From positions 273,079 through 337,078 of the forward strand of contig NZ_HF954537.1 in NCBI RefSeq assembly GCF_000455225.1: 64,000 nucleotides of DNA. The letters run 5' to 3'. Numbering within the stretch: the stretch's first letter is position 1; every line of letters begins with the position of its first letter. Positions 18,866 to 21,109 of the stretch are shown here, one piece after another. The stretch comes from Megasphaera massiliensis. Its GTDB lineage: Bacteria; Bacillota; Negativicutes; Veillonellales; Megasphaeraceae. The translations under genes and the position numbers were made by a program. Below the pieces are notes generated by a model. It saw only the letters and a list, made by a program, of their open reading frames with translations. It had not been told where the DNA came from and made no database searches.

Positions 18866-18922
18866 GTGATCCCAAAAAGTTAGACCTACCACCGTAACAG
18901 CAATGTTGCGGTGGTAGGTCTA
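18866..18922 (+). repeat. Possible IS3/IS150-type end with a long hairpin
   Basis: TGTGATCCCAAAAAGTTAG (18865-18883) resembles the terminal repeat of IS150-group insertion sequences (typically TGACCCCAAAAAGTT). It runs into a hairpin whose 19-bp arms (18881-18899 and 18904-18922, one G-T pair) flank a GCAA tetraloop. No transposase gene is present, so this would be a remnant. The insertion-sequence assignment rests on motif similarity only; a simple terminator for the phosphoesterase gene is an alternative, although no T-run follows. Confidence 0.4.
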
Positions 18923-19010
18923 TCTAGCAGAATGGCGAAGTCGGTATTCTACCGGCTGCACAGGTGGTTATGATGTATCAATAATGTTCTATATTTATTA
19001 TTAATATTTT

Positions 19011-19048
19011 TTCATTAATGAACATAGCATGGATTTTTATAGTATACT
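19011..19048 (+). promoter_or_regulatory. Candidate promoter and palindrome before the Cys-rich cluster
   Basis: TATACT (19043-19048) is a good -10, with a weak -35 (TGAACA, 19019-19024) 18 bp upstream. The -35 overlaps the palindrome TTCATTAATGAA (19011-19022) in a very A+T-rich stretch, a possible operator. Confidence 0.4.
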
Positions 19049-19076: not shown

Positions 19077-19270
19077 ATGCCGGGAGAAATGTAACCGGTC
19101 CCTTTATGTGTGGCTGTACGCCACCGGATTATAAGTACTGCCCGACTTGTGTATTTGCAGAAGGGAAGCCTTTGTTGAGTACTTGCATGATGTATCCGGG
19201 AGGGATGATGCTCAAGCCGAATCATGTGTATAACGGTAAGCCTTGCGAATGGTATCAGAAGATAGAATGA
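19077..19270 (+). pseudogene. Cys-rich micro-protein, copy 1 (frameshifted)
   Basis: This is the first of three tandem paralogues. The start ATGCCGGGA at 19077 has AAAGGAG upstream like its siblings, but relative to copies 2 and 3 there is a 2-bp insertion (GA) directly after it, and the frame ends at TAA after five codons. The conserved body continues in another frame from ATG 19106 as MCGCTPPDYKYCPTC, then FAEGKPLLSTC, ending at 19270; that internal ATG has no ribosome site. All six cysteines are retained, so inactivation may be recent. The middle part (GGMMLKPNHVYNGK) differs from copy 2. Confidence 0.7.
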
Positions 19271-19322
19271 AAGCATTTGCCATGAATAGAGCGTATTCTG
19301 ACGTTAGACGTAGTGCTTTCGC

Positions 19323-19351
19323 TTTTGGAGACCGTTCAGAGTGGCTATACT
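19323..19351 (+). promoter_or_regulatory. Possible promoter for copies 2 and 3
   Basis: TTTTGG (19323-19328), 17 bp, TATACT (19346-19351). It lies in a ~107-bp segment that is present between copies 1 and 2 but absent between copies 2 and 3. The -35 is poor. Confidence 0.3.
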
Positions 19352-19402
19352 GCCTTTGTTTTGTGAACGGGACGGGCTTATGGACAGAAAGGAGTGGTGC
19401 CT

Positions 19403-19591
19403 ATGCCGGGAAATGTGACGGGACCTTTTATGTGCGGCTGTACGCCACCGGATTATAAGTACTGCCCGACTTGTGTATTTGCAGAAGGTAAGCCTTTGTT
19501 GAGCACTTGCATGATGTATCCGGGTACGTCTATAAAGTCGAAAGTAGTGGACGAAGGCGGGCCCTGCGAATGGTACATGAAGATAGACTAG
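19403..19591 (+). CDS. Small six-cysteine protein, copy 2, function unknown
   Basis: 62 aa. It begins MPGNVTGPFMCGCTPPDYKY and continues CPTC, GKPLLSTC, and a C-terminal GGPCEWYMKID. Six cysteines (CGC, CPTC, STC, GPC) in a protein this small suggest metal binding or disulfide cross-linking; there is no signal peptide or membrane segment. AAAGGAG (19388-19394) lies 8 bp before the ATG. The tandem arrangement, strong ribosome site and conservation of all cysteines between copies support a real gene. I do not recognise the family. Confidence 0.75.
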   Translation: MPGNVTGPFMCGCTPPDYKYCPTCVFAEGKPLLSTCMMYPGTSIKSKVVDEGGPCEWYMKID

Positions 19592-19621
19592 AAGAATTTA
19601 TCATGAATGGAGATGCTGCTT

Positions 19622-19810
19622 ATGCCGGGAAATGTGACCGGACCCTTTATGTGCGGCTGTACGCAGCCGGATTATAAGTACTGTCCTACCTGTTTGCTTT
19701 CAGAAGGGAAGCCATTGATTAGTACTTGCATCATCTACCCAGATCCTTATGGGAAGCCAAAAGAGGTTGATGAAGGCGGACCCTGCCAATGGTATATGAA
19801 AATAGAATAA
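19622..19810 (+). CDS. Small six-cysteine protein, copy 3, function unknown
   Basis: 62 aa paralogue of copy 2, placed 219 bp downstream start to start. The N-terminal half is nearly identical (MPGNVTGPFMCGCTQPDYKY, then CPTC); the linker between the fifth and sixth cysteines differs (IIYPDPYGKPKEVDEGG), and the end is PCQWYMKIE. The spacer before it repeats the spacer before copy 2 (CATGAATGGAG-like). Ribosome site GGAG is 9 bp upstream. The pattern of constant cysteines with a variable linker suggests a conserved fold with divergent surface. Function unknown. Confidence 0.75.
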   Translation: MPGNVTGPFMCGCTQPDYKYCPTCLLSEGKPLISTCIIYPDPYGKPKEVDEGGPCQWYMKIE

Positions 19811-20499: not shown

Positions 20500-20593
20500 G
20501 CACATCTGATAAAATGAAAGCAACGAAATATATCAGTATAATAGCCTTAGTGATTTCAATAATAGCGTTTTTTAAAGTTGTGGGGGTATTTTG

Positions 20594-20791
20594 ATGAATC
20601 CATTAGATGAGGTTATGACGGCGGCAGAAGCGGCAGAAAGATGGGGAAAAGCTCCCATTACCATACAACAAGCCTGCTCTGGATACAAGAAAGCTCTTCC
20701 GCGATTTAATTCAAATGAAGCAAGGAAAGCAGGATGAATATGGCTTGTGACCCGTGACGGTATGGAACGACTGTACGGACCTGAACCGTAA
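20594..20791 (+). pseudogene. Small HTH (excisionase-like) protein with an in-frame TGA
   Basis: From ATG 20594 the product reads MNPLDEVMTAAEAAERWGK, then APITIQQACSGYKKALPRF, and stops at TGA 20735-20737 after 47 codons. The same frame continues as IWLVTRDGMERLYGPEP to TAA at 20789-20791. Together they match the layout of small helix-turn-helix proteins of mobile elements, whose ends commonly read WLVTREGMERVYG. A single substitution (for example GGA or AGA to TGA) explains the break. GGGGG precedes the start by 8 bp. Selenocysteine is unlikely in this family. Confidence 0.6.
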
Positions 20792-21025: not shown

Positions 21026-21109
21026 TGGTGCGAGTGAAGGGACTTGAACCCTTACGTCGTAAGACGCCAGATCCTAAGTCTGGTGCGTCTGCCATTCCGC
21101 CACACTCGC
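21026..21109 (-). tRNA. tRNA-Leu (anticodon UAG)
   Basis: The minus strand gives an 84-nt tRNA beginning GCGAGTGTGGCGGAATGGCA and ending in a T-arm GGGTTCAAGTCCC, the acceptor complement CACTCGC, and an encoded CCA at 21026-21028. The anticodon loop CTTAGGA contains TAG, reading CUA (and CUN by wobble) leucine codons. The long variable arm (TTACGACGTAAG region) is the type II arm of leucine tRNAs. A minus-strand promoter (TTGACC, 18 bp, TAAAAT; plus-strand positions 21146-21151 and 21122-21127) precedes it and a terminator follows. Confidence 0.96.

What the first reader, a model, noticed from the sequence alone, without database searches (positions are those of the whole stretch)
19077..19810. 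Tandem family of tiny six-cysteine proteins, first copy broken
Three copies of a ~190-bp unit lie in tandem (219 bp start to start for copies 2 and 3). Each encodes a 62-residue protein with CGC, CPTC, STC and GPC cysteines and a variable linker before the last cysteine. Copy 1 has a 2-bp insertion right after the start codon, while its body keeps all the cysteines. The N-terminal halves of copies 2 and 3 are nearly identical and the linkers diverge, suggesting duplication followed by diversification. I do not recognise the family. Metal binding, redox sensing, or secretion as a bacteriocin or interaction peptide are open possibilities.
Basis: seen in the sequence. Interest (0 to 1): 0.75.

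Follow-up and report, generated by a model that had tools for sequence, protein, structure and literature searches.

The report
Orphan immunity genes against phage toxins
The three tiny cysteine-rich genes are most likely antidotes to a toxin that related viruses of this bacterium build into their heads, kept on the chromosome without the toxin; a fourth gene beside them matches the antidote slot of a second kind of viral toxin.

Summary
In detail: three tandem units (19077-19270 frameshifted; 19403-19591 and 19622-19810 intact), each with CGC, CPTC, STC and GPC. The family is real and under strong purifying selection (dN/dS 0.03-0.07 between orthologues). Nothing supports a redox sensor or bacteriocin. 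In a related phage (L012) the same gene (82% identical) lies 12 bp behind a 743-aa minor head protein, Phage_Mu_F plus an ADP-ribosyltransferase (ART) toxin domain. That slot is swapped in step with the toxin domain in sibling phages and is empty where MuF has no toxin. In another Veillonellales genome a 49%-identical ART is followed by two tandem distant relatives. The window's genome has no MuF gene, so this is a toxin-free ('orphan') immunity cluster of at least two specificities. A sibling species carries an AbiD defence gene at the same site. The immunity families and this phage-facing use look undescribed; MuF toxins, their immunity genes and polyimmunity loci are known. Neutralisation itself is inferred, not shown.

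The parts
19019..19048 (+). possible promoter of the cluster (TGAACA-18-TATACT)
   Evidence: consensus scan, 9 of 12; number of such sites not above shuffles, so weak
19077..19270 (+). copy 1 of the Cys-rich immunity family, frameshifted after codon 3; body open from internal ATG 19106
   Evidence: intact orthologues in MJR8396C
19403..19591 (+). copy 2, intact, 62 aa (P0001)
   Evidence: orthologues with dN/dS 0.05-0.07
19622..19810 (+). copy 3, intact, 62 aa (P0002); the type that groups with the phage gene
19968..20222 (+). fourth gene, 84 aa; homologue of the gene behind a MuF papain-fold (Gln_amidase) toxin: predicted second immunity protein
   Evidence: AlphaFold pLDDT 84, helix-five strands-helix
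20288..20312 (+). terminator-like hairpin with T run closing the cluster
   Evidence: similar sequence at the same place in MJR8396C

Best explanation
The tandem Cys-rich genes encode small cytoplasmic immunity proteins that bind and block the ADP-ribosyltransferase domain which related temperate phages carry at the C-terminus of their MuF minor head protein. The 84-aa gene behind them is an immunity protein for a second MuF toxin type, with a papain-fold (glutamine deamidase-like) domain. Together they form a chromosomal cluster of immunity genes without toxins (a polyimmunity or orphan-immunity locus). It would protect the cell from toxins delivered by incoming phage heads, or made by lysogenic competitors, and duplication with divergence of the linker would track toxin variants. 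Shown: sequence homology, gene order, toxin-linked swapping of the slot, absence of a MuF gene in the host genome, purifying selection. Inferred: that the proteins neutralise the toxins, that they do so by binding through a Cys4 (probably zinc) core, and that the toxins are injected with the phage.
For: Phage contig L012: 82%-identical gene 12 bp behind a protein with Phage_Mu_F (1.5e-22) and ADPrib_exo_Tox (1.3e-17). Homologous MuF N-termini in 16 other contigs; where they carry other C-terminal domains, other small genes stand in the same slot. The six-Cys profile scores 140 bits on the L012 slot gene and at most 0.5 on nine others; the 84-aa profile scores 33 bits on the L040 slot gene (toxin Gln_amidase, 1.4e-16) and at most 3.1 on the others. 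Two MuF genes without toxin (G001, G015) have no slot gene. Second genome of the order (G731): ART 49% identical, followed by two tandem 90-aa relatives (95% DNA identity) that score 15.5 and 13.6 bits against the six-Cys profile, best of 5000 shuffles 8.8. In G006 an 84-aa relative lies behind the end of a papain-fold toxin (E 0.0028, below the family cut-off). No MuF in the window's genome, none like L012's in MJR8396C. dN/dS 0.03-0.07. A sibling species carries AbiD at the same site. Precedent: MuF-ART Bxa neutralised by the small neighbour Bsi (PMC11699363); [quoted passage not shown]
Against: No biochemical evidence. The closely related gene is known behind a toxin in only one phage contig; the second association rests on a distant match. 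A third relative (G462) shows no MuF toxin within its 5 kb stretch. The six-Cys model has pLDDT 41, so neither fold nor interface could be judged. Copy 1 is frameshifted, so not every copy is needed.
Confidence: 0.77

Rival explanations
1. The Cys-rich protein is a phage morphogenesis or head-tail assembly factor (a small zinc protein) and the chromosomal copies are leftovers of a prophage.
For: The phage copy lies in the head gene module; an excisionase-like fragment and a tRNA-Leu lie just downstream in the window.
Against: Sibling phages with the same head module lack it and have unrelated genes in that slot, or none where MuF has no toxin. The chromosomal copies are tandem and strongly conserved where no MuF gene exists, which dead prophage remains would not be.
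Confidence: 0.09
2. The proteins are counter-toxins of another kind: they act as decoy substrates or reverse the modification instead of binding the toxin.
For: Several conserved cysteines; enzymatic immunity (BAH, an ADP-ribosyl hydrolase) is known for Bxa (PMC11699363).
Against: Too small for a hydrolase and no match to one; the ART has an E-x-E motif, typical of arginine modification, so cysteine decoys are less likely (established knowledge of ARTs).
Confidence: 0.06
3. Metal-binding, redox-sensing or secreted bacteriocin-like peptides unrelated to toxins.
For: CxxC...C...C pattern compatible with a zinc site.
Against: No signal peptide or leader seen, no export or modification genes recognised nearby; the gene context in phages is a toxin gene.
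Confidence: 0.06

Closest known systems
MuF polymorphic toxins of temperate phages with a downstream small ORF (PMC5576092)
   Same: MuF N-terminus, swappable C-terminal toxin domain, small gene directly downstream when a toxin is present
   Different: Here the small gene also occurs as a tandem array on chromosomes without any MuF gene; I found no mention of this immunity family there
Bxa with immunity proteins Bsi and BAH, Bacteroides stercoris prophage (PMC11699363)
   Same: MuF-ART toxin neutralised by a small neighbouring protein; relatives of Bxa carry glutamine deaminase domains, like the second toxin type seen here
   Different: No sequence relationship to Bsi was tested (its sequence was not at hand); no ADP-ribosyl hydrolase seen here; orphan tandem array
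Polyimmunity loci (PMC3482391)
   Same: Tandem immunity genes without toxins: a homogeneous part (three paralogues) plus a different immunity gene
   Different: Small cluster of four; the matched toxins are borne by phage heads
Orphan immunity genes and acquired interbacterial defence clusters against T6SS (e.g. PMC12247911, PMC10470768)
   Same: Immunity genes kept without the cognate toxin, with diversification
   Different: The toxin carrier is a phage
Cys_rich_CPCC (PF14206)
   Same: A small Cys-rich protein of this family occupies the same MuF slot in phage contig L036 (2.2e-17)
   Different: No match between that family and the window's proteins

Membership tests
MuF-toxin immunity protein | small gene directly downstream of a MuF gene with C-terminal toxin domain | tested here: met
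   L012, 12 bp behind MuF-ART; distant relatives behind MuF-ART in G731; for the 84-aa gene, L040
MuF-toxin immunity protein | slot gene present only with a toxin and swapped with it | tested here: met
   small sample (about 10 slot genes, 2 toxin-free loci of the same gene order)
MuF-toxin immunity protein | neutralises the cognate toxin | not testable with these tools
   needs co-expression
Polyimmunity / orphan immunity locus | tandem immunity genes without associated toxin gene | tested here: met
   no MuF (PF04233, with positive controls) and no related ART in the window's genome; three paralogues plus one unrelated gene, all on one strand
Polyimmunity / orphan immunity locus | expressed and protective | not testable with these tools
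   needs RNA-seq and challenge assay
Imm35 (immunity to papain-fold Tox-PL1), considered for the 84-aa gene | match to the family profile | tested here: inconclusive
   no Pfam match at E up to 1 except a weak unrelated one; fold searches gave no clear relative; same toxin type and small alpha+beta fold only
Bacteriocin / secreted peptide | leader or signal peptide, export or modification genes nearby | tested here: not met
   sequence begins MPGNVTGPFMCGC, no hydrophobic leader; neighbouring ORFs show no such genes by reading

The most novel reading that the evidence does not exclude
Bacteria keep chromosomal arrays of captured immunity genes, at a defence-gene site, as a phage defence or anti-lysogen defence that disarms toxins carried in phage heads, and they diversify these arrays by tandem duplication to follow toxin variants.
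Probability: 0.45. Interest if true: 0.8.

Novelty: new variant of a known kind. Interest (0 to 1): 0.62.

Why it matters
It gives a testable function to an unrecognised protein family and names the cognate toxin partner. If the proteins neutralise MuF toxins, the locus would be evidence that phage-head toxins exert selection on host genomes strong enough to maintain dedicated antidotes, which bears on the open question of whether MuF toxins are really delivered into bacteria.

Tried and rejected
Pfam, NCBIfam, PHROGs and PADLOC profiles: no family for the six-Cys or 84-aa proteins; weak ComS and Peptidase_G2 matches (E 0.03-0.07) dismissed. tblastn in phage and plasmid records: nothing. Solved structures by sequence: nothing. 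Phylum-wide search of 398 genomes: beyond the two Megasphaera, five weak hits (E 0.001-0.009) that on reading lack the Cys pattern. AlphaFold of the six-Cys protein: pLDDT 41, not used further. Fold searches with the 84-aa model: best PDB Z 5.3 (PipX) with rmsd 4.4 over 69 residues, within the range of common arrangements; best viral Foldseek match an uncharacterised 77-aa phage protein, E 0.005. L047 and L048 (MuF without toxin) have a different gene order, so they were not counted as empty-slot controls. Relatives of L012's ART in Bacteroides and Microbacterium phages were looked at; their neighbouring small genes were not compared formally.

Full report
Observation. The window holds three tandem units of about 196 nt. 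Copies 2 (19403-19591) and 3 (19622-19810) are intact 62-aa genes, with ribosome-binding-like GGAG sequences in front. Copy 1 (19077-19270) carries two extra bases after codon 3 and stops at codon 6; its body remains open from an internal ATG. The finding is confirmed, with a small correction to the place of the insertion.

Family. No curated library knows the protein. In the genus, only Megasphaera sp. MJR8396C (genome handle G009; named) has it: three copies on one contig, two on another. Copies fall into three types by position, shared between the species, and the phage gene groups with type 3 (bootstrap 82-94, small data). Orthologue dN/dS is 0.03-0.07 with dS mostly around or above 1. The body of copy 1 shows no decay, so its frameshift is probably recent (inference). 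In the widest alignment the invariant residues are C21, C24, C36, Y39, P40, K45, G52 and C55: a four-cysteine core; the CGC pair is dispensable.

What it works with. One phage contig of 41.7 kb (L012) carries the gene, 82% identical, between a 743-aa head protein and a head-tail connector-like gene. That head protein is Phage_Mu_F (1.5e-22) plus ADPrib_exo_Tox (1.3e-17). MuF proteins with swappable toxin domains and a following small ORF are a known class (PMC5576092), and a MuF-ART of Bacteroides, Bxa, is neutralised by a small neighbour, Bsi (PMC11699363).

Test by natural swaps. Seventeen contigs share the MuF N-terminus, L012's own included. Where their C-termini differ, the gene between MuF and the next conserved gene differs too. 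Two MuF genes without toxin, in G001 and G015, are followed within 5 bp by the connector-like gene. Against ten slot genes, the six-Cys profile matches only L012 (140 bits; next 0.5), and the 84-aa profile only L040 (33 bits; next 3.1), whose MuF carries a Gln_amidase papain-fold toxin (1.4e-16). An 84-aa relative in G006 also lies behind the end of a papain-fold domain (E 0.0028, below cut-off). So the two gene kinds in the window each match the slot gene of a MuF toxin, of different types.

Second case. Of 380 Negativicutes genomes, one other, G731, in a different family of the order, has a close ART relative (49% identity), again behind Phage_Mu_F. It is followed by two tandem 90-aa genes, 95% identical in DNA with a 272-bp period, and the start of a third. 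They share the C-x2-C, C-x-MYP and C-x-F pattern and score 15.5 and 13.6 bits against the six-Cys profile, while the best of 5000 shuffles of the higher-scoring one reached 8.8. Tandem duplication beside the cognate toxin is thus seen directly. A third relative in G462 (E 1.2e-4) has no MuF toxin in the 5 kb examined.

Orphan status and place. The window's genome, 99.96% complete, has no Phage_Mu_F match (with positive controls) and no relative of the L012 ART; MJR8396C has no MuF like L012's, while five other genomes of the family do. The flanks, a phosphoesterase and a tRNA-Leu region, are 89-97% identical in a sibling (G010), but there the interval holds three other genes, one of them AbiD/Abi_2 (4.3e-37, 8.5e-28), and none of the window's cluster. 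The cluster therefore lies at a variable site where a relative keeps a phage-defence gene.

Mechanism. Most likely the Cys-rich proteins bind the ART domain and block it, as Bsi does with Bxa, with the Cys4 core as a zinc-held scaffold and the variable linker tuning specificity. The binding, the zinc and the neutralisation are inferred. Structure prediction did not help for the six-Cys protein (pLDDT 41); the 84-aa protein gives a confident helix-five strands-helix model (pLDDT 84) without a clear relative.

Novelty. MuF toxins, their immunity genes, polyimmunity loci and orphan immunity genes against T6SS toxins are known (PMC5576092, PMC11699363, PMC3482391, PMC12247911). I found no description of these two protein families, or of a chromosomal orphan cluster aimed at phage-head toxins (the library lacks most subscription journals). 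I file it as a new variant of a known kind.

Noticed in passing
20591-20737 and 21026-21109: A 48-aa HTH_59 / excisionase-like fragment (1.1e-16; phrog_2655 2.9e-8) lies between the cluster and a tRNA-Leu on the minus strand, suggesting a former integration site.
   Followed up: partly
L096 2315-4512 (G010): At the same chromosomal site a sibling species has AbiD/Abi_2 and two genes without Pfam or PADLOC match, on the opposite strand.
   Followed up: partly
L067 2075-2284 (G343): A 69-aa relative of the 84-aa gene seems to sit inside a type I methyltransferase gene, splitting it into two ORFs.
   Followed up: no
L036 4476-4709: The MuF slot gene there is a Cys_rich_CPCC protein (2.2e-17): a second, unrelated Cys-rich family in an immunity position.
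   Followed up: partly
L071 2281-4512 (G731): The ART relative reads WLQSG where L012 has WLQRG, so its presumed catalytic arginine may be lost or placed elsewhere.
   Followed up: no
18878-18925: Inverted repeat (22-nt arms, 91% complementary, 4-nt loop) just upstream of the cluster, close to the point where similarity to G010 ends.
   Followed up: no
L072 3605-4707 (G462): Upstream of the distant relative are two further genes of unknown function with PHROG matches (phrog_35328, phrog_30788); type I restriction-like genes lie downstream.
   Followed up: no
1854-2101: T-box leader (RF00230, 2.3e-26).
   Followed up: no
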